A program made the translations under genes and the position numbers. Under the pieces are notes generated by a model, which made no database searches, had not been told where the DNA came from, and saw only the letters and a list, made by a program, of their open reading frames with translations. A stretch of 64,000 bases of DNA, taken from positions 119,153,281 through 119,217,280 of the forward strand of contig CP136067.1 of NCBI GenBank assembly GCA_032622095.1. The letters are read 5' to 3'. Origin of the DNA: Siphonodentalium dalli. Taxonomy: Eukaryota > Mollusca > Scaphopoda > Gadilida > Siphonodentaliidae. Every line of letters begins with the position of its first letter. The stretch's first letter is position 1. This document shows, piece by piece, positions 662 to 60,712 of the stretch.

Positions 662-884
662 TTATGGCGCTAAGTGTCCCATGCCTATGTGCCGGAGACA
701 ATTTGCATGCGGATAATTTGGCGGCGGTACTTTCTTCCGTTTGAAAACGGAAATTTTCGTTTTGGCCTTTGGTCTTCCTCTTCCATAAAATATATCTTCG
801 CCATATTCTCTGTCATCACATTCATTAGTGTCGTGTAACCAATCGAACAAATATGAGTTGAAACCGAAATTTACGTGAAAATAC
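662..884 (-). CDS. Exon 6, residues 290-363 and stop
   Basis: The acceptor is TTTCTTTCTTCTGCAG. One base completes arginine 290, giving RYFHVNFGFNSYLFDWLHDT. This is the usual ending of the family catalytic domain after HxxHH. A hydrophilic, lysine/arginine-rich tail of about 50 residues follows (GRGRPKAKTK, then VFKRKKVPPP) and ends at TAA 664-662. I could not find a convincing polyadenylation signal in the remaining bases to position 1. Confidence 0.9.
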
Positions 885-3800
885 CTGCAGAAGAAAGAAA
901 TGATTCAGATTAGGGTGAGTTTACATTGCTGTAGATCTGTATACATATCCGTGTGAAGTCACGTGTCGCGCATTACTGTGATCACAACATGATTACTGAT
1001 AGTGAACGCTCATCAGTACTCTGGTAATTGACAATTCACTATGCCTGTCGCGATGCCTCGGTGTTGACCATGAATTGTAACGGACACGATGTTTGCTCAC
1101 ACGAACGAATACCGTTTTCTTTCTGTGTGCATTTCTTTATCAACCTGTTTACACTAGTATGCGTGTAGAACTGTATACAGATCTAGAGTAATGTAAATGG
1201 ACCTCTAGGGGAGTATTTATTAAACACCTTATGTACTAGTAACCTTTTCTATACAAATTGAAATCTCCAATTCAGTTACAAAAAGTATACATTTGACCGG
1301 TCTGTTATTCATTTGGATGAGCGTTGATGTAATAAAAGCAGACGACATGAACAAAAACGGATAATTAAACAAGAGCAGAATGATTCACATTCATAGGTGG
1401 GGAATGTTCAGATGATAAATTCAACACATATGTATATGATCGTTTGTTGAACTTATTATCTGAACATTTTCTAAGGGATAAATACAGTAATGCCCTAAAT
1501 AATCGACTCCTTAACCACAGCAAAATTATGGGTAACTTTTCAGGATTTAGTCGGAAATATGGCTTGTTGCCATTCATCAGAAAGCTCTTGAGTATTTTGT
1601 ATAGATATGGTTAATATACGGCATATATTCATAAGTCATATAAAAGTATAAAAGAGCTTACATCGGATCCGATATAGAGTGCATGTAAGGAAATATATAA
1701 CCACTGTTGAATTACAGCTATGCTCTAATTAATTGACCGGCCTTAACAAGGTTGATCACCGGTATTACCGCGGTACTTGATACAATCAACCACGGTAAAT
1801 TTTAACAAGGGATGTAACAATTCATCATGAATTCAATGTATCCATAGCTTCAACATATCAAGAGGTATTAGACTGAATTTGATCAAAATATGTCATTTTG
1901 GGCGTGAATTTCTGGAGAATAATCAAAATGTGTGTAATTTTGTGCTATAAGAGCTGCGTGTACGCCTTTTTGTTGAATCCCGAATTCCGGTTAAATATGA
2001 ATCCCGAGTACCAGTTAACAGAGGGGAATGAATCCCACATACAGCCTGCAAATGGCCTGAATGCCGCGTACCAAAAGAGGGGGGGGGGGGGTGATACTCC
2101 TTTATATGCTGTACGTAGTAAACGGGCAGTACGCGGTACAGTACCAGTCAGAAGAAGTGGTATATTGAGGCGCGCCTTTATTGCGATATTGAGCGCGCTT
2201 AATTTCGAAAAAGGCGCGATTTTTGCGCAATACCAAAAATAGCTTATTTTATATGATGTACGTAGTGAACAGGGGGTAAGCGGTACAGTACCAATCAGAA
2301 GAAGTGGTATATTGAGGCGCGCCTTTATTGCGATATTAGCGCGCTTAATTTCGAAAAAGTCACGATTATTGCGCAATACCAAAAATCTGTCGCGCTTATT
2401 ATTGCGATATTGAGCGCAAAATTTCACACAGACGCGATAGTGTTATATTTATGTTAGATAAATACTGTGCATATAGTGTACATATAGTGCATATATTATA
2501 CATATACACATTGTCTCTATTTATGAAATAAACAATATAGAAGAAGCAATCATTTGCTTTAAATGTCTCAATTTTGAGCGAAAGATGCCGCAATATTAAG
2601 CGCGAAATATTGCGATATTAAGCGCAAAATATTGCAATAATCTCGAAAACGGCCCGCTTATAAGCGTTTCCACTTGCAATATAATTGCGATATTGGGTGC
2701 GAAAATAGCGCGCTTAATATACCACTTCCTTTGACTAGTACTGTTTTCAGATGAAGTCACCATATAATCTCCTTTTAGTTTAGCTTAATATGACATGCCT
2801 GGTAATTCCAATAAATCGCAATGCGATTTTAAAAGTATAATATCATATATCCCAATTCTTTCAATCCCAATATTAAATACCTGTGATGATTATCATGCCA
2901 CAGTGTTGGTGGTTGCCATGGCCACCACGACTCCATCATAACCCCCGAATGATCCATCAAACCAAAGTAGTATACGTAAAGTAAGGTGGTAACATATACA
3001 CCTGGAATGAGTAAAGTAATGTGGTAACATATACACCTGGAATGAGTAAAGTAAGGTGTTAACATATACACATGGAATGAGTAAAGTAAGGTGTTAACAT
3101 ATACACCTGGAATGAGTAAAGTAAGGTGTTAACATATACACCTGGAATGAGTAAAGTAAGGTGTTAACATATACACATGGAATGAGTAAAGTAAGTTGTT
3201 AACATATACACATGGAATGAGTAAAGTAAGGTGTTAACATATACACATGGAATGAGTAAAGTAATGTGTTAACATATACTCCTGGAATGAGTAAAGTAAG
3301 GTGGTAACATATACACCTGGAATGAGTAAAGTAAGGTGGTAACATATACACCTGGAATGAGTAAAGTAAGGTGGTAACATATACACCTGGAATGAGTAAA
3401 GTAAGGTGGTAACATATACACCTGGAATGAGTAAAGTAATGTGGTAACATATACACCTGGAATGAGTAAAGTAATGTGGTAACATATACACCTGGAATGA
3501 GTAATTTAAGGTGGTAACATATACACATGGAATGAGTAAAGTAAGGTGGTAACATATACACATGGAATGAGTAAAGTAAGGTGGTAACATATACACATGG
3601 AATGAGTAAAGTAATGTGGTAACATATACACATGGAATGAGTAAAGTAAGGTGGTAACATATACACATGGAATGAGTAAAGTAAGGTGGTAACATATACA
3701 CATGGAATGAGTAAAGTAATGTGGTAACATATACACATGGAATGAGTAAAGTAAGGTGGTAACATATACACATGGAATGAGTAAAGTAATGTGGTAACAT

Positions 3801-6800
3801 ATACACATGGAATGAGTAAAGTAAGGTGGTAACATATACACATGGAATGAGTAAAGTAAGGTGGTAACATATACACATGGAATGAGTAAAGTAAGGTGGT
3901 AACATATACACATGGAATGAGTAAAGTAAGGTGGTAACATATACACCTGGAATGAGTAAAGTAAGGTGGTAACATATACACATGGAATGAGTAAAGTAAG
4001 GTGGTAACATATACACATGGAATGAGTAAAGTAAGGTGGTAACATATACACATGGAATGAGTAAAGTAAGGTGGTAACATATACACCTGGAATGAGTAAA
4101 GTAAGGTGGTAACATATACACCTGGAATGAGTAAAATAATGTGGTAACATATACACATGGAATGAGTAAAGTAAGGTGGTAACATATACACATGGAATGA
4201 GTAAAGTAAGGTGGTAACATATACACATGGAATGAGTAAAGTAATGTGGTAACATATACACATGGAATGAGTAAAGTAAGGTGGTAACATATACACATGG
4301 AATGAGTAAAGTAATGTGGTAACATATACACATGGAATGAGTAAAGTAAGGTGGTAACATATACACATGGAATGAGTAAAGTAATGTAGTAACATATACA
4401 CCTGGAATGAGTAAAGTAAGGTGGTAACATATACACATGGAATGAGTAAAGTAATGTGGTAACATATACACATGGAATGAGTAAAGTAAGGTGGTAACAT
4501 ATACACATGGAATGAGTAAAGTAAGGTGGTAACATATACACCTGGAATGAGTAAAGTAAGGTGGTAACATATACACCTGGAATGAGTAAAGTAATGTGGT
4601 AACATATACACATGGAATGAGTAAAGTAAGGTGGTAACATATACACATGGAATGAGTAAAGTAAGGTGGTAACATATACACATGGAATGAGTAAAGTAAT
4701 GTGGTAACATATACACATGGAATGAGTAAAGTAAGGTGGTAACATATACACATGGAATGAGTAAAGTAATGTGGTAACATATACACATGGAATGAGTAAA
4801 GTAAGGTGGTAACATATACACATGGAATGAGTAAAGTAATGTAGTAACATATACACCTGGAATGAGTAAAGTAAGGTGGTAACATATACACATGGAATGA
4901 GTAAAGTAATGTGGTAACATATACACCTGGAATGAGTAAAGTAAGGTGGTAACATATACACCTGGAATGAGTAAAGTAAGGTGGTAACATATACACATGG
5001 AATGAGTAAAGTAATGTGGTAACATATACACATGGAATGAGTAAAGTAAGATGGTAACATATGCACATGGAATGAGTAAAGTAAGGTGGTAACATATACA
5101 CATGGAATGAGTAAAGTAATGTGGTAACATATACACATGGAATGAGTAAAGTAAGGTGGTAACATATACACCTGGAATGAGTAAAGTAAGGTGGTAACAT
5201 ATACACCTGGAATGAGTAAAGTAATGTGGTAACATATACACATGGAATGAGTAAAGTAAGGTGGTAACATATACACATGGAATGAGTAAAGTAAGGTGGT
5301 AACATATACACATGGAATGAGTAAAGTAATGTGGTAACATATACACATGGAATGAGTAAAGTAAGGTGGTAACATATACACATGGAATGAGTAAAGTAAT
5401 GTGGTAACATATACACATGGAATGAGTAAAGTAAGGTGGTAACATATACGCATGGAATGAGTAAAGTAATGTGGTAACATATACACCTGGAATGAGTAAA
5501 GTAAGGTGGTAACATATACACATGGAATGAGTAAAGTAATGTGGTAACATATACACCTGGAATGAGTAAAGTAAGGTGGTAACATATACACATGGAATGA
5601 GTAAAGTAAGGTGGTAACATATACACATGGAATGAGTAAAGTAAGGTGGTAACATATACACATGGAATGAGTAAAGTAAGGTGGTAACATATACACATGG
5701 AATGAGTAAAGTAAGGTGGTAACATATACACATGGAATGAGTAAAGTAAGGTGGTAACATATACACCTGGAATGAGTAAAGTAAGGTGGTAACATATACA
5801 CATGGAATGAGTAAAGTAAGGTGGTAACATATACACATGGAATGAGTAAAGTAAGGTGGTAACATATACACATGGAATGAGTAAAGTAAGGTGGTAACAT
5901 ATACACCTGGAATGAGTAAAGTAAGGTGGTAACATATACACCTGGAATGAGTAAAGTAATGTGGTAACATATACACATGGAATGAGTAAAGTAAGATGGT
6001 AACATATACACATGGAATGAGTAAAGTAAGGTGGTAACATATACACATGGAATGAGTAAAGTAATGTGGTAACATATACACATGGAATGAGTAAAGTAAG
6101 GTGGTAACATATACACATGGAATGAGTAAAGTAATGTGGTAACATATACACATGGAATGAGTAAAGTAAGGTGGTAACATATACACATGGAATGAGTAAA
6201 GTAATGTGGTAACATATACACATGGAATGAGTAAAGTAAGGTGGTAACATATACACCTGGAATGAGTAAAGTAAGGTGGTAACATATACACATGGAATGA
6301 GTAAAGTAAGGTGGTAACATATACACATGGAATGAGTAAAGTAAGGTGGTAACATATACACATGGAATGAGTAAAGTAAGGTGGTAACACATACACCTGG
6401 AATGAGTAAAGTAAGGTGGTAACATATACACATGGAATGAATGCACCGCCTCAAAATTCCGTTAAAACAACTAATCCTTCAAATTATTACAAAAAACTAC
6501 GGCTTATTACTGCAGGTTTTTCATTCACCAAAACCAGAAAGCTTCTAAATGCGGATTAAAAATTGTGTTCCGGCCATAAAATCTTCTAGTGTGCATGGCC
6601 CAGCCATTGTTCGTACCTAAACATCGAACGCAATTAACGCGGTAATAATAGTTAAATACTGCAACCATAAGACATCCAGTGAATACACACCCCACGAAAA
6701 CCCGAAATGTGTTGTCCTGCGAGATATCCCATCGCTATAGCTCAATTTGACACGGCCAGATTAGCCTTTCTACAATATCCTAAAACAATAAAGCTTCTCA

Positions 6801-9265
6801 AATCATCGGCATAGTCAATAGAACTTTTACGAACTTGGACATTCCAACTACAGCTTTTATCGGACTCGGGGTCGCAGTACAACTTTAACGCGTCCCAAAA
6901 TAACCGGAAAAAAACAATTATCTATTTATAAAATCCCCATAGGACCACAGATTTATAAAATTTGTAGAACAGTATACACCGGTGGCGTTAATGAAGCCGA
7001 TTAATGAGAAATGTCTGAATGTTTTATTGATACATCATTCCAAACGCTACACGAGCATTGAACTAATATCCTAGGACTTTGTGTTATCATAATCAGGGGC
7101 GGCGGAAGCTACAAAAAAGTGGGGGGGGCACCATTTAAAAAAATATATACTACATGTATGAATTGAAAACTGTTCCAATGTTCGCCAGCGCAAAGATTGT
7201 TTAGTATGATGTTATTCGTGGCTACCATTATGAAGGTAGAAACTAAGAAAGAGTTTAAAGGGGTACTGTACGCCACATGTTGTTGTTGGTTTCTATAGTC
7301 TCCGAGTCGGAGAATAAGGTAACAATTTTTCCATTATTTGAAAGTCTGTTGAGTACGAAGTCATGTTACGGATGACAAATTTACCGGAATGCAAAAATAC
7401 AAATTGTCGTTGTCGAGTAATTTTTGTAAAGTTTTCAACCAAATGAATCAAATAAAAGTTATATTATATGCATACTAGTCCCATATAATCATTTAAGTTA
7501 TTGTATCGTCGCTAGTCAGTGAGTGGCTTGAGTGTTCTCCCCGTATCATCATAATATTTTAAGCAATCGTGTGTGCGATCGGTTTAAAAATCCAGTATCC
7601 CTCAATTACTATTTTTGATTACGGTAATTCGTAATTTAATTGACGCCATTTTATGGCTCCAGTCATAAATTCAATTTATATCAAATTATTAACTTTTAAA
7701 TTATTAAATTTAAGATAGCCTATTAACCTGAGCGTTTACAGAATACATCTTCGACTCAAATTACTTATGTTTCTATATATTATCGATATTAGATCGTTGT
7801 TGTCACCTGAAATTTAATGAAAATGGCGTACAGTACCCCTTTAAATGATGCTACTCTGCTACTCACTTATTTTTGCAGCCAATGTGTGAAACATGACCTA
7901 TGACTTTGATACAACTTCTAAAACTTGCACCCTTTGTCATAAATGTTATGATGACATTAGTATTCACTATACTGTATAATCCAATTCACTCCACATACGA
8001 CAACCGTTGATATCGAAGAAACAATAATCACAAGTAACTTTGAATATTAAATAACACTATAATATATATGTACACATACACTTGCATGTACACAGTAAAC
8101 TTCGTGTAGAAAATAATTATTCTAACTCTTCTTATTTCTCTGTAATAACAAATTAGCTGAGTTGATAAAAATCATAGTCAAGTTATTCCAATGAATACTC
8201 AGCATCAACTGATATTGTATAATAGCAAGTGATCTCATATCAGGAGTTTGACCACCTTGGCATGAAATTGTATACCTGCCAAGCCCCAGGTTTGCACTTT
8301 TATTGAAGACACTCAAATTTAAACCTTTGATTTGTATGATGAATGTGATTTTAATTAGACAAGTTGCTGTGTCCAAGACATGGCTATAATGGTGCCCACA
8401 GAAGACATGAGCTCTACAAAGAACTCAAAGTATGTAGTTAAATTCCCAGAGGGCAATTACTCAGACACAGTGTCAATACTGACCAAGGGATTAACTATCT
8501 ATCTTGCTAGCCATAGCCATAGTGGCATGACTGATAAGATTAAACACATTTGTCTACTAATGGAATGTTTTCTTGGGAATAAAACATTATTTTCTCCAAT
8601 GTATTTAGTATTGGAAGATTATGTACCCATAATTGAGGGGGGAGTGGGGGGGGGGCACGTGCCCAACTGTGCCCCCCCGGCTCCGCCGCCCCTGATCATA
8701 ATCATAGGTTCTACAACTGAGACGGTTTAATCTGAAGTAAGATCTATGATGTTTGCAATCATTTAGAAAGCCGTCATTTAGAAGAAGACGTCAATGAATC
8801 CAGTGTGTGTACATGTATGAGGTGATAGAGATGCAAAGAGGATATACGATGTTATGTCGTTAGAAATGGCGACATTCTATTGAAATGTTCCTGTTTGAGA
8901 CACAATAGAAACTTAAAGATATCCAGCACTATAAAGGGGAAACGAGTGGTGTCAAATGATGTACATTCAGGCATGCTTTTACGTCATGCCGTCAGCCTGT
9001 TGCTAAGCAATCGATCAGTCACTTGATATCCCCATGTATGTGTTTCCTAGTTCATATAACACTATTATATATAGCAAGCTATATTTGATTGAAATGCAGG
9101 TAATTTTCCTCATATTTAATTGATATAACAGCTTTCAATTTTAAACGAATGTAACAGAAGAACTATTTTGCTAACTCAGATGTAGTTCTACTATGAGTAT
9201 AAACGTTTAACCCATGAAATGACGTTTGAAAATTTACAGAGAGGGGGAGAGAGAGAGAGAGAGGG

Positions 9266-9306
<41 letters not shown>

Positions 9307-9365
9307 GGAGGGAGAGAGAGATGGAGAGAGAGAGAGCGAGAGAGAGAAAGAGAGTGAGAGAGAAA

Positions 9366-9399
<34 letters not shown>

Positions 9400-12300
9400 C
9401 AGACCGACAGACATACATATATTTACTCATGTTTGTCCTGTATTAACCTTATATAGACTCTTATCTACATGTATATATTGTTTAGAACACATTATCTCAC
9501 TGTAGGGGGTCTAAATATTTAAATATGTTGTTTGAGATCACATTAAAATTATAGTATGGGTAACGGGTATGAATTTATATTTTGAGATGGTATGCACATG
9601 TAGACAGTGATTTATGTTCCCAATTTTATCAACAAACTGTATTTCGCACGAGGAATTAATGATGAAATAGTCATGAAAATTAATTGAATATATTTATGTA
9701 AACTTAAAAGTAATGCAAAACATAAAACTATAACAAATATAGTCGTCCTTACTTGACAGACAACCATCTGACACAACTAAAATGTATAACTAAAATGTAC
9801 GGAACCTTTGTGGGATAAAAATATGCTTTGATGTTCTGAAAGGTTGAGGTTGCATGCCACTTATATGTGAACCAGGCTCGATATCGTGGCCAGCATTCAT
9901 TGGAAGATTGTCGGGCAGATTGAAAATTTAAATATGAGCCAGTATGAGCGAAAGTTTTATTGAGATATTTATATTTAGCGGCGAAAGATGTGGTCGAAGT
10001 GATATCTGTACAATAGATAGCTTTCCTAACTTGTTCTTTTATTAATTTTAAGTGGCAATATAATTTGGTTTTTTAAATTAATAATAAAGACATGACCTGA
10101 CTCATTGTCGTGGTCATATAGAACCTCATCGGCATAATATGGCTTTAGCCCTTTAAAACGACTAGCCCCGTGTGTGCGACAGGCCTACTATGTAAACGGG
10201 TAATGCAAAAGGTAAACACGACGCGACCTGATTTCCAGGTTGTCCGAAGTGACCTTTTTGGTGAAAATGAGATATTGGTATTGTTGAAAGTAGAATTTCA
10301 TAGCGCTTCTAATGTTGGAAACGGGAAGTTCGTATTTTAACTTCTCGCGAAGATGTCAGGCATTATTTTCTGCCCGTTGTACTTGAAATACAATGTATGT
10401 AACTTCCAGGTTGTCACATCTCATTTTAAACATTATAGCCTTATTTCCACTTTGAACTGGAATTAATTGAATACTATTTTAGCGACATAGGACATTGTGG
10501 AATTGAAGATATGCTTGGAACAAAATAGAATTGTCACAATTGCATGTGAAGTGTAAGCACATTATTGCATAATTATAGAACAACATGGAATTTAATTGGG
10601 TTGTTATTACTAACGTATATATTTATATAATATCAGTTAGAAATTATCCGTACGTGCCATGGGCTGAGATGACTGTAGCCCTCCCAATACATTTTGCAAG
10701 TTTGAAATTTGGGCATTTTCGGGAAAATTACGTAAAAAGTCGGGCAATTTGTATGTTGATTCGGCTGGGAAATTGTGGTAATTTCAGGATTATTTTTCAT
10801 ACTTCCGGCCGAAATATACACAAGTTTGCATGTATTTTAATATATGTAACAAATACAGGATACATACCACATAGTTAATCGATCTACATAATAGCGGACC
10901 CATAATACAACTTAGTTCGTCGGCAGGGGTGTTGCGAAGGTGTCCTGAATTTGGAGGAGATTCCCCACTTCCCACATAAGAAATTCCGATTGCACCACCA
11001 GTCATAGCTTCCCAATGTGTACCCCTCTCATGTCTCTCATCTCTCTCAGGTCCCCATTTTCATAAGTATTGAAATGATATGGATATTGATATCTGGTAGA
11101 GCATGCACAGTAGCATGTTATATATATACTTGTCTCCGAGACTATAGTCTTGTCGAGCGTTGCCCTTTGTGTATACCTGGGTCTAAAAAATATCCGGGAG
11201 AAATTGCTCTTTGTAGATACCTGGGACTAAAAAGATGAATCTATACTATGGCTAACGCCCATATATATCATATTCCACCAGTACAAAACTTGGGAACTTT
11301 TTGATGTTCTGACCCGTTCTGACGGTTGGTGAGTGTATACCTTGAGGTCTGAATTTTTTTTTTTTGGGCCTCGTGTCGGCAAATATTTTCCAGACCCCTT
11401 GGTCATAACATCAAAAAGTTCCCAGGTTTAGTACTGGTGGGGTATGACCTCTACTGGCCTATACACTATGGAGTAGATATTCATGACACGATCTAGCATG
11501 GAATCATCAAATAATAAGCATCAGAATATACTTACCCGCGTGCAAGGGGACACAAAACACCGGTATTATTAGAGAAAACTGTAGAAAGAAGAATTCTGCA
11601 GGGTGCATGGCGACAGCACTGAATGCGGTCGGGCTGTGGTACCGGTGGTGAGTCTTATGTATATTCCTGTATATAATCGGTATATGCAGCCCTCGATGTA
11701 TGTAGTAGGCTGTGGCCTCTGTATACAGAAAGAACACCGGGATGCTGGCCAATAAATACAACCAGTCTCTCTCTAGTGGATAGAAATACAAAGTGTTGGC
11801 ACCTGAAAATAACAATAAATTAGGCTGCATTAACCCTTTACCCAACAGAACGGCCCTGTGCCAATGCATTCTCTTATATATGTGAGTCGACCACAGGTCG
11901 CCTCGCATATACAAGAGAATGCATTGGCTTCACACATATTAAAAATGATAAAATTGTCAAAGAATGTAGAAAAATATTATAGAAATTGTTAAAAAATGTT
12001 AGAAAAAATTATAAAATTGTTAAAGAATGTAGGCCAATGCATTCTCTTATATATGCGAGGCGACCTATGGTCGACTCGCATATATAAGAGAATGCATTGG
12101 CACATGGCATAACTGTAACCATCACAATATGGTCAATGAACCGGTTCCAATGATATCCATATTTGTATGGTGTTATTGAGACAGACCGAAGATATTTTAG
12201 GCTGTTGAAGTTTTATTTGGGCGTTTTTGGCCGTTTTGTTGGGTAAAGGGTTAACTCATTCAAGACTGGAGCTGCGCTAATGCAGCATTAAAGATCATGT

Positions 12301-15300
12301 TCCAGTGGATTCTCTTATGTATGCAAGTCTCCCATGGGGAGCCTCGCATATATAATAAAATACACTGGCCTACAAAGTCAAGGAACAATGGTTAAGCCAA
12401 TATATTCTCGTATATATGTGAGGCTCTCTGTGGGAGGTTTTTCGCAAAAAATTCAGGAAGCTCCACTCATGGAAGTGTTAAAGGCACTCAACAGGATTTC
12501 ACCTCTACCCTGCTGAATCCTGAATACCAGTTAACATAGATGGGTGAATCCTGAGTAATTGTTAAAAAAAATTTGGAATACATAGTTTTTGTGATTTTAC
12601 ACTACTATCATAGTTTTCACACATTTTCTGAAATACATTTAGTATCCATAACTGCAAGATATGACATCAAGAGGCATTAGACTGAATTACATCAAATTAT
12701 ATCATTGGGCTGCATGGACATTAATAAAAAAGTGGGTGTTTTTTGCTATAAAAGCTGCGTACCAGAATTTTTGTTGAATCGAAAACCCTGTGCCAATGCA
12801 CTCCCATCGGGATCCTGCCATATATAAGAGAATACATTGGCCTAACAATATTAATATTGAAAATTTAAGCCAATGCATTCTCTTATATATGTGAGACTCA
12901 CATATATACGATAATACACTGGTCCATGATATTTAATGTTGTACCCGCAGCTCAGCTTCCGTCAATGAAAGGGTTAACTAACACGTATAATCTAAACTGT
13001 ATATATTTGATTCTCAATGTGTCAACATTTTACTCACTTTGTATATATACGATACGAATACGATACCCATACGATACTTGCCTGTAATGTTATGCATTGT
13101 GTTACAAGTAAAGCTTTTGTTTTGTTTAAAGGTACTCAATCCGATTCGATATTCCCCATATCATCATATTCCAACAACAAGAACAACAAGAACAAGAAGA
13201 AGAACAACAACAACATCAACAACAACATTTCTTGAAATGCCGCTTCAGATATCAGAATCTATTAATTGTCCAAAAATAATGCTAACCACTGTCAACTATA
13301 GTATAAAATTGTCCAAAACCTGTTATTTATCAACATTTTGTTCAACGAAATGTTGCCGGTTTGTCAAATATCTGACACAAAAAAAGCTATCCATCTCCAT
13401 CCGCAATTTGGTCCGAGGTGGTCTTCTCGTCGACTTCTTACCAAGCCACTAAAAAGTATAAAAAGTACCGGTGGTGAAAATAATATATTTAAAAAATCGA
13501 TATCTGATCACTTTGAGCTTTGTTCCTCGACTCAAATCAAATATTTTTCACCCCGAAGCCAAAGAAATTGTGATTCGGATAATGCATCTTTAAAAACCAC
13601 GGAATAATAACGTAGGACGACTAGAGTGCGGCCATTGATGCTGCAAATAAGTTAAATGGTTAACCCCTTCATGGCGGGAGCTGTGCTGATGCAGCATTAA
13701 ATACCCTGTTCCATTGCATTCTCTTATATATGCGAGTCTCCCATATGGATCATCGCATATAAAAGAGAATACAATGGCTTAAACGTCAAGGTAACTATTG
13801 TTAGGCCAATAATTTATCTTATATATGCGAGGCTCCCTATGTGAAACTCGCATATATAATAGTATACATTGGCACAGGGTTTAATTCGCAAAATTTCAGG
13901 AATCTCCCGTCGTGGAAGGATTAACGCAGCGCCCACAATCTGATCATAAACAATTTACGATGTCTGTATTATAGAGTTATCTGTCGTTGCATTTGTTGGA
14001 AATATTGGCTATGCTGTTACAGTAATTGTTTACAAACAATGATTTCAACATGCATAAACTCGTTACTGGAGGATTATTTATATATAATTTGGGAGGGTTC
14101 TCTATTCCGAAGGTTCATTATTCCGAAGGTTCGCTATTCCGAAGGTGCATTATTCCGAAGGTTCCCTATTCCGAAGGTTCGCTATTCTGAAGGTTTTCTA
14201 TTTTGGGCGTATTTAACCATAAATGAATATAAATTTGCACCCCCCCCCCAAACAAAAATGACACGAGGAATGAAAAATACTATTACGCTACATATAGTAC
14301 ATTTATAGACCCCATTATAATACCCAGATGTCAGTTATTAATATCAAGAAGAAAGTATCAGTTTATCATTTATTATGGAAAGTTGACTGCATGACTGAAA
14401 TAAACTACACGTAAGAGATAGTCTGTCCGAACTGGCAATCTGTATTTGAAAGAAAAATCAACATTAAAGGCCCACTTAATTTTCGACCACCAGATCACAT
14501 ATATAAAATATATGCCATATTATATACCATTTGAAATAGGAAGCTCTTTAACATTGTATTATCAACTTATCCGGTGTAATAAACTGTGAACATGTTGTTT
14601 TTGGTCAGTTACCGACGTGTTTTTGTGCTTAAGTTTCATCTGGCTTGGTTGTGCAAAGTGTATTATTTTCAATGGAGGGGGAATAACTCTATATTTTAAA
14701 GATAGATTAATTCCTCTTCCCTTTTTTTAGTTTGAATTATGTTGCATTCTGAGACCCATAACAGGGGAATCTTTTTGTTATTTCAGCTGTTTTCTATTTC
14801 TCTATGGGCATCTTTTGAGACACAGACGTTTCAAATTGTGATGAATTATAGTATTTTAATCATATTTATGGCATAGATTGTTATTAAACCCGTATATCAA
14901 GGCGCTATAAACAAAATAATCGGTGACTCGAAAATTAAGTGTAAAGTTAATACAATGCCATAATTGCAGTTAGGATCATCTCATATATACCCGTATGTAT
15001 TGAGAAATAACGGCATACGTAATGACATTAAATCTCAAGGAAACTCCGAGGAAAAAAAATACATTTTTGTTTTAATGTTTTAAGTTATTTCCTTCATACA
15101 AAAATCTTCGTGATAAAGAACTCTCTCAACACTTTAGAATATAGAATTAACCTTTAAAATAACAAAAACCTTCGGAACAGCGAACCTTTGGAATAGAGAA
15201 TCATCGGAATAGCGAACATTCGGAATAGTGAACCTTCGGAATAGCGAACCTTCGGAATAGTGAACCTTCGGAATAGAGACATGTCCCCATATAATGTAAA

Positions 15301-21300: not shown

Positions 21301-24300
21301 TCACCAGAGGGTGAATTTAGGGAGGCCATCCCGCACAGCTGGCTAGCATAACCAAATTCACCATCTGGGAACCTCATTCTGCTTAGGCATCATCTTCTGG
21401 GAAGTATCTATAGTTCTCAAATTTACATTGTTTGAAGCTACTTTTTCCCTTCTGAGAAGTTTCTATATCCCCTAATTTGAGGAAATTAAAATGCATAATC
21501 GAGGTGACTAATGCATGGGTGAACATCACCAACTTCAACTGGGGAACTTCAATCTGATCCTACGTCTCCCATAATAGTTGAGGTCTAAGCAGTATGAGGT
21601 CACCAGAGGGCGAATTTCATCCTCCGTGGACCTCACTCCGCAAATGACAGACACCATATATGCAGACTTGGACGTTACACCCATTATAGGTGCGTGCTTA
21701 CCTTGTCTCTGAGTTTAATATAGAATTTCCACTGGAACAGTCCAGATATCCCATAGTAGATGACGAACGATACAGACATGGAAACCAGCGACACCAAGTG
21801 GAGGTTTTCCAAACCTACCCGCTGCAGGAACGTAGCATCAACGTCCAATGACGTATTCGACATGGCTTTGATGGGGAATAACGACAGAACTTGGTCTCTG
21901 GCGATATATGTAGCAAACAGCAGCCATTCTCCTGAAGGTATAATAGTAACACATTGTTGTTAAAGTGATGTGAAACTCTCCGGTAGGGTGATCAAATATA
22001 AATGGAGAATACTCTTGTTCAAAGAAGTTATTTTTACAAATATTATATCTAAATTGAATTAAATGTAGTGACTCTCGATGGTGAAATCGTTTTCGTTAGT
22101 TTATTGCCGATAGATGCGTCCCGAATCGAGTAGTAAATATTTACAATAATTGAGAGTAGTTCAGATGATATGCGCCTCTGTTGTGATATACTGGCTAATT
22201 ATTCTCAGCTTAAAATAAATACTGCTTTAATTTAGCTACATGTGCCCGACACACATCGATATTTTAAGTTGTTTTTTAAAATGAAAATAAATCCTCTGTA
22301 TCGGGCAGATACAGTAGTGGAGAATCGTGAAAAGTCATGTGCTACTGACTGTGTTTTCTTTTATCTCAGAAGAAACTAAATTTTACTGCACACTGTGACC
22401 ACTATTTTTGAACAGGCCTATAGATTTACATCTCTCTTGACAAATTGTATCTTGTTTTGGAAAATATCTTGAACAGGAAAGACTCAATTTTGTTAAAATA
22501 CATGAGCCATTGTTACGTGCCATCCTCTGACGGTTCAAGGTCCCTCGTTTTGCAAGAATATATGTATATCTTAAAATAAACATTATATGTATCTGCTTTT
22601 TGCTGGATCACTATATGAATGCCATGTTTCCCGTCCCCTAATGCTTAGAACGAATAATGGAGATTACTATATTTAACTTTGGTGGATATCGGCGACTAAA
22701 ACATTCTAACCCACACCATTATCTTTCTCGGAAAAAGTTACCCCTGTTAGACCCCTTTGGTGCCGTCTACATGATCCCCGTGGATTTCTATAGAACACAG
22801 ACAGACAGACATTCGAAATCTTCTCTCCTATATATTTTGATACAATCTGTATTCGAGAGATAACCCACATCATCCGGACCTCAATGATATGATCGTGAAT
22901 GAGTATTGATATACCCCACTAAACTTTGACAAACACCAGTAATGGTGTGTAGATAATTTACATATCTCTCCTATATATTTTGATACAATCTATCTAATTT
23001 ACATATCTCTCTTATATATTTTGATACAATCTATCTGTTTGTCTGTTTGTCATTTATACAAATCTACGATTCTCCACCGATCGAGACCAAACTTCCTATC
23101 TAGGGGTAAAATCCCACGGACACGGTCGTTGTCGTATTGGCGATCCCGTGCGACGCCCGCTTCGCGCATGCGCAGACGAGATCTCGAAACGGGTGGAGTT
23201 TTCGACTTGAAATTTGGTGTGTGAATGTATCTTGCCCCGGATACGAATTTTATCGGGTCGCCGAGCCCGTGCGACGCAGCTTCGCGCATGCGCAGACGAG
23301 ATCTCGGAAACGGGTGGAGTTTTCGACTTGAAATTTGCTATGTGAATGTATCTTGCCCCGGATACGAATTTTATCGGGTCGCCGAGCCCGTGCGACGCAG
23401 CTTCGCGCATGCGCAGACGAGATCTCGGAAACGGGTGGAGTTTTCGACTTGAAATTTGGTGTGTGAATGTATCTTGCCCCGGATACGAATTTTATCGGGT
23501 CGCCGAGCCCGTGCGACGCAGCTTCGCGCATGCGCAGACGAGATCTCGGAAACGGGTGGAGTTTTCGACTTGAAATTTGCTATGTGAATGTATCTTGCCC
23601 CGGATACGAATTTTATCGGGTCGCCGAGCCCGTGCGACGCCAGCTTCGCGCATGCACAGACGAGATCTCGGAAACGGGTAGAGCTATCGACTTGAAATTT
23701 GCTATGTGAATGTATCTTGCCCCGGATATGAATTTTATCGGGTCGCCAAGCCCGTGCGACGCCAGCTTCGCGCATGCGCAGACCGGATCTCGGAAACGGG
23801 TGGAGCTATCGGCTTGAAATTTGGTATGTGAATGTATCTTGCCCCGGATACGAATTTTATCGGGTAGCTGAGCCCGTACGACGCCAGCTTCGCGCATGCG
23901 CAGACCAGATCTCGGAAACGGGTCGAGCTATCGACTTGAAATTTGGTTTTTGAATAGCCCGGACAACGTCAGGCTCATCGGCTAGTATATATATATATAT
24001 ATATATATATTGGTTAGACCATTAATTTCTTCATTCAGAAATTACATACTGCATCCTTTAAATTGAGTTTGTCATGGTCCATAAGATACTGGGACAACCA
24101 GAATAGAATATTTAGTTGTCAGTTGATTAAGTAATATGTATAATAACTAAGTGAGTCACAATTTGCAATCAGTTTCGGAACAGCAGAGAATATTGTTCGA
24201 GATATATGTGAACAAAATCTACACTTTTTACCAAATGTGGTTGCCATTTTGCAAGCTATCTTGGGGATTTGGTATAAACATTCCTCAGTGTGATGCATAC

Positions 24301-27300
24301 AATTCCAATCAAAACAACAAATGCATTTGATACCTAGCATAGTTCCAATTTATTTGGTAGTCCAAACCTGAAAAGTGAATTTTTGCCGATTTTAATATCA
24401 AGTTAGTGAGAGAAAATTCCAATACTTCTTGTAATGTCAATGGCTACAATAGAAAAAAATAGCCAATATGCTTCAGAAATGCTAGTATTCAATGTATACA
24501 TGACAGATTAGCCAATTTGATTCACCAAATACAACATGTAATCGATTACATGGCCTGCTGGGGCAATATTTACAATTTTCCTAATCTTGACCGCCATTTT
24601 GGCCGCCATTTTGAGAATAAGAGACAATTGGGATCAAATGAGTTGGACTATTTATAAGTAATGATATGCATCACTTACAGTGCACAGTTCTGCCCATTTA
24701 TTGTTCAAACATGACAAGAACACCAATTGTGACTTTTGGTAAAATTTTATACTGCGCTCTGTAAAATTAAATGTTTGATGTAATAGAAGGGGCTGGGACC
24801 ACACGAATGGCACATTTCATTGCTCCAGTGATCATTTAACATAAACAATACAAAAATAAAGTCACAATTCTGAACCAGTTCCACACAGCAGAAACTAATC
24901 TAGAAACTATTATTGAAAAATCGTCGATTTTTGGTGGCCATCTTGGACATGGAGTTCCAATTTTGGCCTAAAAATATGGCATTATATCTTAGCTTCATAA
25001 AAATACATACATTTGTTTACATATGACAAGATTTTCTCACTATAATTTTCATCAAACTGACTTAGTGACCCGTCTGAAAACTGCGGCCATGTTGGACGCC
25101 ATTTGTCTGGTGTCTAGACGGCCACTTTTTTCGTGATACATTGCTTAACATTTGAGGGAAATAATAAAGAAGAGAATGAGTTAAGTGAATGTAACTTCTC
25201 GGGGGGGGGGGGGGGGGTGCAGGGGGATCATAACAGCCCCTGGACTATACGTCATTCTAAACAGAAGCTGAAAATCGGATTCTGATGGAATGGTTCCAAA
25301 AGCCCATTATCATCTCAAACGCCAGGAAATATCGTTTCGTAAGTTATTTTTTTATGATCAGTGAACATTAGTTAATATTTACACCAAAAATGACGGATGT
25401 ACGCGAAAGTGTAATTGAAAGTGATTTTGTGGAGTTTTTTTTAGCGCTCCTTGCCCCTAAACGCCAGGTTTGTGAAACTTAAGAAATGGTGTTTCTCCAA
25501 TTATTCAAAGTTGATACCAAATCTAGGGCATCAAACCTTTCGTACGCGATAGAGATATTGAAACCCTCTGGACTCCCGGTCTAAATGGTCTATTTATGGG
25601 CTATCAGGTTGTTTATTTCTAGATCGCGACAGCGCCAATTCGCACGACAGTAAATATATTGTGATTTGTAATTTGCCGTACACCATCATCTAACATTTAA
25701 TGTGCTGATATTTTGAAAGTTACACTACAAATTCCCACCGATTTTCGTTGACTTAATCTCTTCATGAACACATTGATGCCTCAAGAAAATTTTAAAGGAT
25801 GTATTTTACCCTGTACCAATGCATTCTCTTATATATGCGAGTCGACCATAGGTCGCCTCGCATATATAAGAGAATGCATTGGCCTAACAATATTTTACAA
25901 TTTTAATAATTCGTTCTTGTATTCTTTAACAATTTTATAATTTCACCCATACAGAACCCCAGACAAACATGAGCAAACGACACTCTTCTATATGCTTCTA
26001 TATATGTGTGGGGCTCCCTGCAGGGTAATGGATGTTTTTTATTTTATGTCCTAAAAATTGTAAGAAACTTTATTTAAAAAAAATGATAAAAAATTGTTAG
26101 GCCAATGCATTCTCTTATATATGCGAGGCAACCTATGGTCGACTCGCACATATAAGAGAATGCATTGGCACATGATGCCTCAAGAAAATTTTAGAGGATG
26201 TATTAAATAAGATACGTTTTAGATCTCACGATTGATATGTTCCCATGCAGGAACGCAATGTCATTAACCCTTTACCCAACAAAACGGCCAAAAACGCCCA
26301 AATAAAGCTGCAACAGCCTAAAATATTTTCGGTCTGTCTCAATAACACCATACAAATATGGATATCATTGGAACCGGTTCATTGACCACATTGTGATGGT
26401 TACAGTTATGCCCTGTGCCAATGCATTCTCTTATATATGCGAGTCGACCATAGGTCGCCTCGCATATATAAGAGAATGCATTGGCCTAATAAAATTCTTT
26501 TTTTAACACTTTTTACCATTTTTTCTTACATTCTTTAACAATTTTATAATTTTTTCTTACATTTTTTAACAATTTGTATAATATATTTCTACATTCTTTG
26601 ACAATTTTATCATTTTTAATATGTTAAGCCAATGCATTCTCTTATATATGCGAGGCGACCTATGGTCGACTCGCATATATAAGAGAATGCATTGGCACAG
26701 GGCCGTTCTGTTGGGTAAAGGGTTAAATATTATCCACACATGTTGAACTGTTCAACTCATCGTCGATAATCCACCAATACCATTATATAGCGAACGTATT
26801 CAGCGAGAGACTTCGCCAAAAGTTTTACACATAAAAATTAAATTGATTAATTCTAACGGTGGTATACTACAAGAGGACAATGTTGGTAAAAATCATGCAC
26901 AATTTCCGGTGTCGGATATACACGATGTTATTGTTAGAATTTTTATCAGTGACGATTCGATTCGATGTGAAATCCTTGACCTGATTCGATGCGAGATTCG
27001 AATGACCGTTGTATATCATTATTATAGAATGGGCTTAATGGATGGAATACAGGTAGGATCGTGTAATAAAATGAATTATTACACATGATCCTACCCGTAT
27101 TCCATTCAATAAACCCATTATATAAATTGTGACACGCAACGTTCGTTGCATAACAGCAAATAGTGCCAGGTGACCTTTGACTTCCGGTTTGTCGTCTATA
27201 CATTCCGTACGCTATGTCTCAAAAATACTATGGCTTCTAATATTTTTCCAACAAACATTAATGAATGAATATTTTGAATAGTTATTTCATTAAATATGCA

Positions 27301-40187: not shown

Positions 40188-43100
40188 CTAGCTATCGATG
40201 GTTTTCTCGTGGAGAACAAGATTCTTAGTTTCATTGGACTTGTGCAACAGCGTTTTTCGCTCTGTTGATAATGATTGACAGTAAAACATATAGTGAATTT
40301 CGTCACCGATTTGGCCGTTGTTACATAGTGTACATATTCGATCATCACGGGGTGTACTATGCCACCTACCCTTTTCTATTGGTAATGAGTGGTTGCTTGT
40401 TCTGAATCGAGCTAGGGTAAATTTTATGTCATCACGAAACTCGGAGATGTAATATTCCTGACCAAATTCCGGTTTTAATATCCTGTATATTTCTCCTCGA
40501 CTGGAGCGTTTACACGATTCATGCCATTGTTGAATATATTGATCAGTCAGTTTCTGTTTCACCAGCGATATGGTTATATTTAAATCTATGGCGGAGTTCT
40601 GTCCGATCCACATATATGATAACCCACAATCATTTAAAATACTTTTCACTTTTCTCAGCCAGGGTGTGTAAAATCCATCAGTTTCGGATATCATGAGGGC
40701 AGTTTGATATAGTTTTTGGGCGAGAGAATTAACTGATCCGTTCAAAAGCTTGATCCAATAGCTAATTATCCTCACCTTAATGGTGACATCGAGGGAGTAT
40801 CGTCCCAGTTCACCGTATACCATGAAGCTGGGAGTGGTGGATCTCAAGTGTAGCAACATTTTACAAAATTTCAAATGCATCCTTTCTATGATGGAGTTGT
40901 CTCCCACTCCCCATATTTCTGAACCATAAATAAGAATGGGTAAAACCATAGTGTCAAATAATCGCAAATGCGCATTGATCGATAGTTTGTGTACACGTCC
41001 GATTCTGAAGACTTCATACATTGAATGAGTAGCTTTTCTAACTGCAGCGCGTTTAGCTTCTGTAAATGACCCATTTCTGGAAAGAGGTATACCTAAATAG
41101 TTGAATGAGCTAGCCACTTCTAGATTAATATTATTGAATGAAAAGCCAAGTGGTTTGGGTTGTCGCCCCCGTGAGAAGTAAACTACCTTGGTTTTCGGAA
41201 TGTTAACCTTTAGTTTCCATATATGGCAGTAGTCTTCGAAACAGTTCAACTGGTACTGCAGATCTTTTTTTGATTCGGCGAATAAAACGGTATCGTCAGC
41301 GTAAAAAAGGACACACAATTTCAGATAACAGTCTAGTTTTCTCTCCATTTCATTAGAAACTGTTCCCATTCCCTCCACGTCTGTACTGGCCAAAAAATCG
41401 CTCAGGTCATTTATGTACAAGGAAAAAAGAAAAGGGGAGATATTATCACCCTGTTTTAAACCAACTGCAGAAGGGAACGGCTCTGACTCTTGGCCATTTG
41501 CTAATACTTTAGACTTAAAATTGTCATACATATTCACAATTACACGATATATTTTACCAGTGATTTGGTTTAATCTGAGTTTATACCACATACCTTCTCT
41601 CCAAACTCTATCAAAAGCTTTCTCGAAATCTATGAATGCACAGAACATCTTCTTTTTCTTATATCTAGCAATTTCAAGTAAAGAATTAATTATAAAAATG
41701 TTGTCAATGGTCGAGTGCTTTTTTCGAAATCCTGACTGATTTTCGTGAATTACATTGAACGTATGAGAAAATTGTGTGAGTCTCGTATTCAAAATTGACG
41801 TAAATAGTTTCCCCAAACAACTCAGTAATGTTATACCCCTATAATTGCCTGGTTCCTGCTTGCTTCCTTTCTTTTTATATATTGGGATAATAGAACCCAC
41901 AAGCCATGAATCCGGAATACACCCTATATCGAGCACGTAGTTAAAGAGTTTTATCAGTAACGGCATGAGTTTTCCCGCTGAAGCTTTTATGTATTCGTTG
42001 CGGATTCCGTCATCGGATGATGCTTTGTCTGACTTTAAATGGCTTATACAAGTGGCGATTTCACCCTCAGTAATGGGTGTGTTAAGTAAATCCGATCTGT
42101 CCGAGATTGTAGCCGTGGGAGTATCGGTCGGACTCGGTACCCCATTATCATGGTCGAATGATATATCTGGATCATTGGGATCGTGTGGTGTATTTAGCTG
42201 CTTAAAATGTCTACTGAACTCATCAATATTCACGCCAATATCTCGCGCAGTGTCGCGCCCCTTTACTGATTTCCAAAAAGCTTTCGGGTCGTGTTTATAG
42301 AGATGTTCCATCTTAATCTGCATTTCATTTTCGTATATTTTAATTGATTTATTCAGGCACTTTTTATATTCTTTCTCGCTCTGGCGGAGTTCTGTTCTGT
42401 TACTGTCACTGCGGCCATTAAGGTAGATTCTTAGTTTTTTCTTGTAATTTTTCCGCATACTGTTGCATTCGGGGGTTAGCCAGGGTCTGTCGGTTTTTGT
42501 GTATGGTTTATCATCGGTTTTCTTGGAATACTTATTTCGCCTACCGAAAGTGTTTAGGGCTGAACCAACTAAAATTTCTACAACTTTGTCCGTCAAGTTA
42601 TTCACGTTTTCTTTCGGAGGATTTTCGGATTGTATGCTTTCATCAAACATTTGAATCGCTAAATCAATGTTAGCATCATTTATATGTCCGATGTATTCCT
42701 TACAAAGCGAATGGTCCCATCTTGCGGGTTTCGGTGTTCCTGAATCTGTATTATCTACATTATATTTTTGGGGTTTTCGCTTCGATGTCAATGTAAATGT
42801 TAATGCACAGTGTGCGTCTGACCGTAATGAACTAAACTCGCTTACTACAAACGTTTTGAACGAACGCAGACAGTCGGTGTTACAAATTACATAATCAACT
42901 ACTGATGAGTTTTTACATGTGAGTTTACCGATTTTCGCATCCCCACCGAATCTGCCATTTACAATGAATAGATCAGATCTCCGACACATGTCTATGAGTA
43001 ACCTGCCGTGGCTATTAACCGTTTTATCACTGTTTTTCCGTTTCAGCGAGAAACCAAATTCGGTTAGTCTAGATATATCTTTCTGTATCACTATATTATC

Positions 43101-43613
43101 ACTACATGTATCTAAATTATCTCTGTCGGTATAAAACTCATCGTAGTCACTCAGTTCTGCAGTGCGGGCATTGAAATCTCCAGTAATTATCACCTTTTCA
43201 CAATCTAATGCTTTGCTGAGATATTCGCATTCAATTTCATTGAAAAATTCTTTATTAGCAAATTTGGATCTTTCAGGTGGAATGTATACGGCCCCTATCA
43301 TCATATCCCCATTCGACTTGGTAATGATTTTCGAGACTTTGACCCAATGTATACACTTACAGTCGGACGCAATGGGACTAATGTAGTTTTCGAGTTCCTT
43401 ACGATATGCGATGACAATCCCCCCAGATTTTCGAAATGAAAACTTTTGGCGATTTTTTGCGGTAAATTTGAAACCCTCGAGAATCAGTTCATCACAGTCG
43501 TCGGTTTTGGATTCCAAAAAACATAAAATGTCAAATTCATTACAAAATTCTACAAACTCGGGGCATTTTAAGCGTCTTTTCAAACCACACACGTTTAGTG
43601 TCAAAATTTTCAA
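40188..43613 (-). CDS. LINE ORF2: endonuclease-reverse transcriptase (1141 aa)
   Basis: Residues 1-275 are an APE-type endonuclease: LTLNVCGL (4-11), catalytic-type E34 in FLESKTD, GDFNAR (145-150) and SDAH (265-268). The reverse transcriptase spans about 515-850: YKKKGSKQEPGNYRGITLLS (579-598), FIDFEKAFDRVW (660-671), GLKQGDNISPFLFSLYINDL (718-737), catalytic YADD (771-774) and FNYLGIPLS (837-845). The tail has YGSEIWG and a CTLC...H...C motif. All catalytic residues I checked are present. It nicks DNA and primes cDNA synthesis there. The clade (L1, CR1/L2 or another) cannot be fixed by eye. Confidence 0.93.
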   Translation of the reverse strand: MKILTLNVCGLKRRLKCPEFVEFCNEFDILCFLESKTDDCDELILEGFKFTAKNRQKFSFRKSGGIVIAYRKELENYISPIASDCKCIHWVKVSKIITKSNGDMMIGAVYIPPERSKFANKEFFNEIECEYLSKALDCEKVIITGDFNARTAELSDYDEFYTDRDNLDTCSDNIVIQKDISRLTEFGFSLKRKNSDKTVNSHGRLLIDMCRRSDLFIVNGRFGGDAKIGKLTCKNSSVVDYVICNTDCLRSFKTFVVSEFSSLRSDAHCALTFTLTSKRKPQKYNVDNTDSGTPKPARWDHSLCKEYIGHINDANIDLAIQMFDESIQSENPPKENVNNLTDKVVEILVGSALNTFGRRNKYSKKTDDKPYTKTDRPWLTPECNSMRKNYKKKLRIYLNGRSDSNRTELRQSEKEYKKCLNKSIKIYENEMQIKMEHLYKHDPKAFWKSVKGRDTARDIGVNIDEFSRHFKQLNTPHDPNDPDISFDHDNGVPSPTDTPTATISDRSDLLNTPITEGEIATCISHLKSDKASSDDGIRNEYIKASAGKLMPLLIKLFNYVLDIGCIPDSWLVGSIIPIYKKKGSKQEPGNYRGITLLSCLGKLFTSILNTRLTQFSHTFNVIHENQSGFRKKHSTIDNIFIINSLLEIARYKKKKMFCAFIDFEKAFDRVWREGMWYKLRLNQITGKIYRVIVNMYDNFKSKVLANGQESEPFPSAVGLKQGDNISPFLFSLYINDLSDFLASTDVEGMGTVSNEMERKLDCYLKLCVLFYADDTVLFAESKKDLQYQLNCFEDYCHIWKLKVNIPKTKVVYFSRGRQPKPLGFSFNNINLEVASSFNYLGIPLSRNGSFTEAKRAAVRKATHSMYEVFRIGRVHKLSINAHLRLFDTMVLPILIYGSEIWGVGDNSIIERMHLKFCKMLLHLRSTTPSFMVYGELGRYSLDVTIKVRIISYWIKLLNGSVNSLAQKLYQTALMISETDGFYTPWLRKVKSILNDCGLSYMWIGQNSAIDLNITISLVKQKLTDQYIQQWHESCKRSSRGEIYRILKPEFGQEYYISEFRDDIKFTLARFRTSNHSLPIEKGRWHSTPRDDRICTLCNNGQIGDEIHYMFYCQSLSTERKTLLHKSNETKNLVLHEKTIDS

Positions 43614-43670
43614 TGAGTCATATTTATGAATGTAATTTTTCCTCCTCTTATCTCGTTCTCCTGATGTGTC

Positions 43671-44702: not shown

Positions 44703-45110
44703 TTGGAGTCACCCTGCGTACCCTCAATATAATCAGCGTGTAACGAGTATCGTGGTCCGTGATTCACCTTCCAGACCCTCAGTTTATTCAGCAAACGGTT
44801 ATTCGTGAGTGGATAATCAACACACACAATAGGCAATCAACCAACACTGTCAAGCAGTGCGGACAGGCGTACGATAAATAGTTAACAATGGCCGAGAAAT
44901 TACGAAAAAGTTTTATGTTCAAACCTCAAGAACAGGCCTTCATCGCAGTGTCCATAATATCACAAAGCATCGCCGCATAACACAGAACAACTTAAAGTTC
45001 TCCAGAGTCTAATATTCCAACTGGATCGCCAGAAAGCAACTTTTAATGAAAAATATATCACCGATCTGTTTGTTTACGTTTGTCCCTCGCTGCCTCGCTA
45101 CAAATGAGCA
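44703..45110 (-). other. Probable LINE 5' UTR
   Basis: Non-coding sequence upstream of ORF1 on the minus strand. The boundary is set only by where sequence character changes. Confidence 0.4.
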
Positions 45111-59888: not shown

Positions 59889-60712
59889 CTACAAATTTCG
59901 ACTGTAGTCGTCGATAATTACGAGGAGATACTGACCACATGGCAAAGGTCCGAATAAATCAATGCTTATTTCTGTCCATATTTCTGATGGGAGTGGGGTC
60001 ATTTGCAGTGGTTCTCGTGGAATTTTGTTGGTTACAGATTGACACGCACAACAGGTTTTAACATGACTTTCGACAAAGTTGTCTATACCTGGGAACCATA
60101 CTTTCTCCCGTAACAATGCTTTGGTTTTATTTATTCCCTGGTGACCCTCATGAGCAAGAGATACAGCTTTGTCATGTAGTGACTGGGGTAATACAATTTT
60201 ACTGCCCTTTAACAAAACACTTTCAATGTGAAGAGAAAGTTCTGTATGTATTTTCTTGTATGGTATAATTTCTCCAGAGGCCTGGTCCCAGTTACCAGAA
60301 TGATAAACATTAATTACTTGACTTAAAACCTCATCTTTTACGGTTTCTATTTGAATTTCAGAAAGAGCAAGGGCTTTAGGAACAGCATTTGAAATAATTT
60401 TATTTATGTACTCATCTGTCCGACTAACTGGAGAACATGTATACTTTAAAGGATGTCTTGACATGTAGTCGGCAGGATTATTGATGCCTTTCTGGTACTT
60501 GAGTGTGAATTGAAAAGCTTGTAGCCTAAGAGACCAACGCTCAAGTCTGGATGGTAAGTTAGCTTGTACTTTACCAAAAAGGCCCAAAAGGGGTTTATGA
60601 TCTGTAAAAACAGTAACTGAGTTGCCGACAACATACAACGAAAAATGTTCGAGGCCCCATACTACAGCTAATCCTTCGCGTTCTAACTGACTGTATCTCT
60701 GCTCAGTAGGGG
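59889..60712 (-). pseudogene. gypsy pol: RNase H C-terminus and integrase N-terminus
   Basis: Continues RNase H in a second frame (TEQRYSQLEREGLAVVWG; VTVFTDHKPLLGLF), then the integrase HHCC zinc finger (HEGHQGINKTKALL ... CCACQ). Next is the start of the catalytic core with its first Asp in WTEISIDLFGPLPCGQYLLV. It ends at a frameshift after DDYSR near 59890. Confidence 0.9.

What the first reader, a model, noticed from the sequence alone, without database searches (positions are those of the whole stretch)
2976..6440. Minisatellite seeded on a splice acceptor: each unit copies intron end plus exon start
The 35-bp unit, read on the gene's strand, is 26 bases of exon 5 coding sequence plus the nine intron bases TCATTCCAG, acceptor included. 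The unit nearest the exon is the real acceptor and codes VYVTTLLY. The other 98 extend into intron 4. Many keep the AG (CCAG|GTGTATATG); others lost it by a single change (CCATG). Of the 16 exon-proximal units, I count 11 with AG. This duplicates a functional RNA-processing signal nearly a hundred times. The join is supported by matching codon phase with exon 4 and by the family motif that follows.
Basis: partly seen in the sequence, partly recalled or inferred. Interest (0 to 1): 0.9.

Follow-up and report, generated by a model that had tools for sequence, protein, structure and literature searches.

The report
Repeat array copying a splice acceptor
A 35-base stretch that spans the end of an intron and the start of an exon in an animal lipid-enzyme gene has been copied about a hundred times into the intron, a large example of a rare kind of repeat described before in amphioxus.

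Summary
Observation confirmed. A 99-copy, 35-bp array fills 2976-6440. On the minus strand each unit is 9 intron bases (TCATTCCAG) plus the first 26 bases of a 121-nt exon (3001-2881). The gene is of the fatty-acid hydroxylase family (PF04116). Joining exons 4+5+6 through the exon-proximal acceptor scores 76.3 bits. Dropping the repeat-encoded residues costs 17.6 bits, mostly for their length and hydrophobicity. Four more distant homologous loci in the same genome have no intron there. So VYVTTLLY is very probably old coding sequence and the array was seeded from the junction.

New here: a second gene copy 730 kb away (duplicate or unmerged allele) has a 98-unit array with AG in 75 and unrelated unit order, while exons 4-6 differ at 2 of 611 sites. 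Only acceptors 1 and 4 (window) or 1, 4, 7, 10, 13 and 16 (second copy) read open into exon 6. The exon half of each unit supplies a branch-point-like, pyrimidine-rich stretch for the next acceptor.

Most likely a 'mirage' minisatellite, tolerated because the terminal acceptor is used. No transcripts were available. Known kind, extreme copy number.

The parts
2976..6440 (-). Minisatellite array, 99 units of 35 nt; unit = 9 nt intron end + 26 nt exon start; 29 units with AG, 70 with AT at the acceptor dinucleotide
2881..3001 (-). Exon 5 (121 nt), begins inside the exon-proximal unit at CCAG|GTGTATATG, ends CATCACAG|GTATTT; codes (G)VYVTTLLYVYYFGLMDHSG...HDNHHR
   Evidence: sequence; Pfam PF04116 on joined exons and controls; homologous loci L015-L018
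3002..3010 (-). Exon-proximal (terminal) 3' splice site TCATTCCAG, the acceptor inferred to be used
   Evidence: reading-frame and Pfam tests
11536..11802 (-). Exon 4 (267 nt), HRGLH and HKTHH motifs, donor CGG|GTAAGT
662..884 (-). Exon 6 coding part with stop; acceptor CTGCAG|GTATTT; YFHVNFGFNSYLFDWLHDT...
   Evidence: (acceptor)
3002..11535 (-). Intron 4, whose 3' end is the array
   Evidence: inferred from the exon model

Best explanation
A mirage-type minisatellite. A tandem duplication spanning the intron 4/exon 5 boundary of a fatty-acid hydroxylase-family gene produced a 35-bp unit carrying the 3' splice site. Unequal exchange or replication slippage amplified it into intron 4 to about a hundred copies. 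The last copy stays fixed as the real acceptor and the start of exon 5, because its 26 exon bases code for a hydrophobic segment of the enzyme. The upstream copies are intronic decoys that turn over fast and are free to lose their AG. They are tolerated because each new copy puts exon-derived sequence (TGTTACCACCTTACTTTAC), with a branch-point-like and pyrimidine-rich stretch, just upstream of the next AG, so the terminal site keeps a good acceptor context. Exon definition from the exon 5 donor (121 nt away) then favours the nearest acceptor. Shown: anatomy, frame and domain fit, two arrays with unrelated unit order, constraint on exons 4-6. Inferred: the amplification mechanism, the signals read by the spliceosome, and terminal-acceptor use.
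For: Array and unit anatomy. Of the joins scored, the terminal acceptor gives the best PF04116 match: 76.3 bits against 58.7 (9 residues dropped), 61.7 (+35 residues), 56.6 (exon 5 skipped). L015-L018, four of four other homologous loci listed, are one open exon across the point. Second gene copy with a 98-unit array at the same junction; exon 5 beyond the array is identical in both. In the aligned blocks used, 2 of 611 coding sites differ against 177 of 11,015 non-coding sites, binomial P = 0.003. Unit order of the two arrays is no more alike than shuffled (score 10.5; shuffled mean 10.7; 32 of 60 shuffles as high). The consensus unit has one AG only, the acceptor. Pyrimidine fraction at -20..-4: 0.76-0.82 for the AG units printed, 0.82 for exon 6, 0.71 for exon 4, and 0.53 for the distal flank joined to TCATTCCAG. 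Precedent: amphioxus BflGb6, tandem copies of intron 3' end + exon 5' part, many with AG/GT, with regular splicing suggested by RT-PCR (passages of PMC3087553).
Against: No transcript data. Most of the 17.6-bit gain is length (8.2 bits) and hydrophobicity; the real residue order adds 1.7 bits over a shuffle. Exon 5 with intron read-through alone had no Pfam hit at E <= 10, and exons 5-6 alone score 21.9, under the cut-off of 31. The L015 tblastn match runs 8 residues past the exon 4 donor into intron 4, and L015 had no listed match to exon 5; L017 matched it at E = 0.067 only. Acceptor 4 keeps the frame in both copies and may be used; acceptor 2 of the window has like local signals, so some mis-splicing is likely. 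The distal flank may be rearranged (foldback insertion in the second copy), so the pre-array acceptor context is uncertain. Exons 1-3 not found.
Confidence: 0.75

Rival explanations
1. Self-correcting (recursive) acceptor ladder: each AG-bearing unit carries AG|GT, so joining exon 4 to an upstream unit recreates a 5' splice site (CGG|GTGTAT) that can be spliced again to a later unit; every route ends in the same mRNA, and the array acts as stepping stones at the end of the 8.5-kb intron.
For: CCAGGT is present 28 times in the window array and 72 times in the second. The unit's own CAG|GTGTAT matches the recalled donor consensus at 7 of 9 positions, the same as the exon 5 donor. Dual-specific AGGT sites in tandem repeats are spliced in human UBC (passages of PMC10809524).
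Against: The recreated donor CGG|GTGTAT matches at 6 of 9 positions against 8 of 9 for exon 4. 70 of 99 window units have lost AG. A 35-nt step is shorter than usual introns (general knowledge).
Confidence: 0.08
2. Regulatory decoy array: the upstream acceptors compete with the terminal one, so copy number and AG content set the share of frameshifted, NMD-targeted or 35-aa-longer products.
For: Of 29 AG acceptors in the window array only 2 (units 1 and 4) give an intact reading into exon 6; of 75 in the second array 6 do. The G>T change that kills the acceptor is the commonest variant in both arrays (70 and 22 units).
Against: No expression data. AG enrichment near the exon appears in the window array (3 of 99 rotations as high) and not in the second (61 of 98), which points to array history rather than selection.
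Confidence: 0.1
3. Reverse order: a pre-existing intronic minisatellite was exonised and its last unit replaced the start of exon 5.
For: The array is open over 990-1083 codons in all three minus-strand frames, so some coding potential is automatic. The Pfam profile accepts other hydrophobic residues there nearly as well (74.6 vs 76.3 bits).
Against: The segment has the length the family needs and sits in the right phase; four other homologous loci carry a like segment with no intron; a repeat would have had to hit length, phase and hydrophobicity together.
Confidence: 0.07

Closest known systems
Amphioxus 'mirages' (Adh3; globins BflGb6 and BflGb9; PGBD5 repeats likened to them)
   Same: Minisatellite-like tandem duplication of an intron-exon boundary; BflGb6 copies the 3' intron end plus the 5' part of the exon, as here; many but not all units keep AG/GT; copy number differs between haplotypes (passages of PMC3087553; PMC3902484). 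The Adh3 paper itself is not held.
   Different: BflGb6 has 6 and 3 units of 150-160 bp; here 99 and 98 units of 35 bp, in a 2.2-Gb, 9-contig genome, too large for amphioxus (about 0.5 Gb, recalled).
Minisatellites carrying splice donors: human F7 intron 7 and IFI6/6-16
   Same: A minisatellite repeats a splice signal beside its exon (recalled; papers not read).
   Different: Those repeat 5' splice sites; here a 3' splice site with its upstream signals.
Tandem arrays of dual-specific AGGT sites (UBC, VCX3A)
   Same: Tandem units bearing AG|GT at which splicing can join repeats (passages of PMC10809524).
   Different: The UBC sites mark off coding monomers that are variably included; here the units are intronic and 35 nt, so two in three upstream acceptors shift the frame.
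Intron gain by tandem duplication of AGGT (Rogers 1989, as cited in PMC3087553)
   Same: Duplication spanning AGGT.
   Different: Here the array lies at the end of an intron; gain of a new intron is not shown.

Membership tests
Mirage minisatellite | Tandem units span an exon-intron boundary | tested here: met
   (boundary by homology and frame, no RNA)
Mirage minisatellite | Units retain AG/GT signals in part | tested here: met
   29 of 99 and 75 of 98 units with AG
Mirage minisatellite | Length or sequence instability | tested here: inconclusive
   Unit order unrelated in two copies of the locus shows turnover; unit number nearly equal (99 and 98); population or somatic variation not testable
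Mirage minisatellite | Regular splicing in spite of the repeats | not testable with these tools
   no RNA data
Mirage minisatellite | Host range so far reported (amphioxus) | tested here: inconclusive
   genome 2.2 Gb in 9 contigs against about 0.5 Gb recalled for amphioxus; species not identified. A matter of reported range, not of structure
Fatty acid hydroxylase family (PF04116) | Domain match above the curated cut-off over the whole profile | tested here: met
   76.3 bits vs 31, profile 3-132/132
Fatty acid hydroxylase family (PF04116) | Histidine clusters H-x3-H, H-x2-HH, H-x2-HH (recalled) | tested here: met
   HRGLH, HKTHH, HDNHH in the joined translation

The most novel reading that the evidence does not exclude
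The array is a self-correcting ladder of recursive splice sites: because nearly every copy that keeps its AG is AG|GT, a wrong acceptor choice regenerates a donor and is spliced on to the next copy until the terminal exon is reached. Such an array could therefore grow at a splice acceptor without harming the mRNA.
Probability: 0.08. Interest if true: 0.8.

Novelty: new member of a known kind. Interest (0 to 1): 0.52.

Why it matters
It is a natural test of how the spliceosome picks one 3' splice site among dozens of near-identical ones with the same local context. Two copies of the gene, with 29 and 75 AG-bearing acceptors, allow a comparison within one genome. It suggests that mirages are not confined to amphioxus, and why they may be tolerated: the duplicated exon start doubles as the pyrimidine-rich region of the next acceptor.

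Tried and rejected
An AG gradient as evidence of selection: 11 of 16 proximal against 18 of 83 distal in the window array (Fisher P = 0.0004), but the second array shows none. In the window array the C>A variant at column 22 is confined to units 3-9 and a 9-unit block recurs exactly (units 25-33 and 77-85), so later amplification explains it. RNA structure over window 2861-3150: z = -0.39, nothing. Solved structures: no phmmer hit at E <= 10. Prokaryotic relatives by the search for related loci: none confirmed of 12 pattern matches. NCBIfam: none. Pfam on the exon 5 open frame alone and on an array fragment: none. Whether the second copy is a duplicate or an unmerged haplotype is unresolved: colinear blocks broken by indels run through much of the 84 and 108 kb compared. 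Literature: nine answered searches, of which I saw listings with the starts of abstracts, and passages of three papers. One search listed 8 papers; the two that I opened for these mirages are on lancelets. I do not claim that other hosts are absent from print.

Full report
Observation. Cut from the exon end, all 99 units are 35 nt. On the minus strand the unit is TCATTCCA(G/T)GTGTATATGTTACCACCTTACTTTAC; the last unit reads TCATTCCAG|GTGTATATG and runs on into GTATACTACTTTGG. The consensus unit holds no other AG.

The gene. A Pfam scan of three minus-strand frames of 6441-13940 and one frame of 1-2999 found PF04116, fatty acid hydroxylase, at exon 4 (45.9 bits). Exon 4 runs 11802-11536 with acceptor TTTTCAG and donor CGG|GTAAGT; exon 5 runs 3001-2881; exon 6 starts at 884 and its stop ends at 662. 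The joined translation carries HRGLH, HKTHH and HDNHH, the last cluster close to the exon 5/6 join. Phases agree: exon 4 leaves one base, exon 5 gives GT, making GGT. I did not locate exons 1-3.

Is VYVTTLLY coding? With the terminal acceptor, exons 4+5+6 match PF04116 over 3-132/132 at 76.3 bits. Without GVYVTTLLY the score is 58.7 (still over 3-132); with the 35 residues of the next in-frame acceptor added it is 61.7 in two stretches; exon 4 alone gives 49.2, exons 5-6 alone 21.9 (under the cut-off of 31), exon 5 skipped 56.6. As a control, nine polar residues in place of GVYVTTLLY give 66.9 and the same residues in another order 74.6. So the profile wants nine residues there, hydrophobic ones, and says little about which. 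One search listed, besides the two gene copies, four other loci (L015-L018). All four have an open exon across this point, matching profile positions 2-131, 2-131, 15-112 and 17-112. L015/L016 look like SC5D-type desaturases (label recalled) and read PLHKMTYLMLFVFVNIWTVSIHDG, which lines up by eye without a gap against PLHAGVYVTTLLYVYYFGLMDHSG. L017 reads VTTMIYISLAVVITLSHHSG, aligned by tblastn with VTTLLYVYYFGLMDHSG at E = 0.067. Against this, the tblastn match of L015 to exon 4 ran 8 residues beyond the donor into intron 4, and no L015 match to exon 5 was listed. On balance the exon sequence is the source and the array the copy.

A second copy. The window lies in a 2.23-Gb, 9-contig genome. 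The 18-base core TCATTCCAGGTGTATATG occurs 96 times, all in two arrays on C7: 27 in the window and 69 near 119.886-119.890 Mb. The second array has 98 units at the same junction of a second copy of the gene. The surroundings are mostly 96-99% identical in long blocks broken by indels, with a few blocks nearer 92%. In the aligned blocks used (window -259 to 15490, array left out except where it is exon 5), 2 of 611 coding sites differ, one synonymous and one I to V, against 177 of 11,015 non-coding sites, P = 0.003. Allele or duplicate cannot be decided here.

Turnover. In the second array 75 of 98 units have AG. Both arrays share the same three common variants (columns 9, 22 and 26), so these probably predate the split, but the order of units is no more alike than when shuffled. 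The window array seems to have amplified an AT-bearing type over most of its length, leaving AG-rich units at the exon edge. The exon-edge AG excess is not seen in the second array.

What the other acceptors would do. Of 29 AG units in the window array 9 keep the frame and 2 (units 1 and 4) read through to exon 6; of 75 in the second array 25 keep the frame and 6 (units 1, 4, 7, 10, 13, 16) read through (the window's exon 4 end was used for both). The next AG downstream inside exon 5 is at base 70 and would remove the DHSG segment. So among the array acceptors only the terminal one gives the family's length, and unit 4 is the only other acceptor that reads through in both copies.

Signals. Upstream of the array acceptors lie TGTTAC (branch-point-like, its A about 24 nt away; motif recalled) and a pyrimidine-rich stretch CCACCTTACTTTACTCATTCC. 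Pyrimidine fraction at -20 to -4, for the unit positions printed (9 in the window array, 8 in the second): 0.76-0.82 at the AG units, 0.82 for exon 6, 0.71 for exon 4; 0.53 for the most distal window unit (AT) and for the distal flank joined directly to TCATTCCAG; the most distal unit of the second array, cut one base short, shows 0.88. Thus the exon half of one unit serves, by sequence, as the branch-point and pyrimidine region of the next. This is inference, and the distal flank may have changed.

Known relatives. Amphioxus mirages are the same kind: BflGb6 repeats the 3' end of an intron with the 5' part of the exon, 6 and 3 units in two haplotypes, units 150-160 bp, many with AG/GT; the authors' RT-PCR suggested regular splicing (passages of PMC3087553). 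Lancelet PGBD5 has similar repeats at splice sites (passages of PMC3902484). Tandem AGGT arrays that are spliced are known in human UBC, with VCX3A analogous (passages of PMC10809524). The F7 and IFI6 donor minisatellites are recalled; their papers were not read. What is unusual here is the scale, about 100 units in each of two copies, the short unit, and probably the host.

Verdict. A member of the mirage kind at extreme copy number; interest moderate.

Noticed in passing
G000 C7:119884437-119897292 (L009-L011), outside the window: Second copy of the gene and array about 730 kb from the window, in a colinear block broken by indels: recent segmental duplication or unmerged haplotype.
   Followed up: partly
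L010 bases about 3978-5368 (distal side of the second array): A ~1.4-kb insertion with an inverted copy of the array's distal flank and foldback arms lies between the array and the flank shared with the window.
   Followed up: partly
G000 C2:149.83-150.60 Mb: Dozens of near-identical protein-kinase genes (281-codon frames) close together on one strand.
   Followed up: no
window 23141-23955: A second minisatellite, 121-bp unit x 6.7, 95% match (TRF).
   Followed up: no
window 11830-13880 and 25710-26730: Many short copies, in both orientations, of an interspersed repeat whose translation reads ANAFSYICESTIGRLAYIRECIGL; also near the homolog L015.
   Followed up: no
window 40191-44708 and 59892-62559, minus strand: Long open frames that look by eye like a non-LTR retrotransposon and a gypsy-type element.
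   Followed up: no
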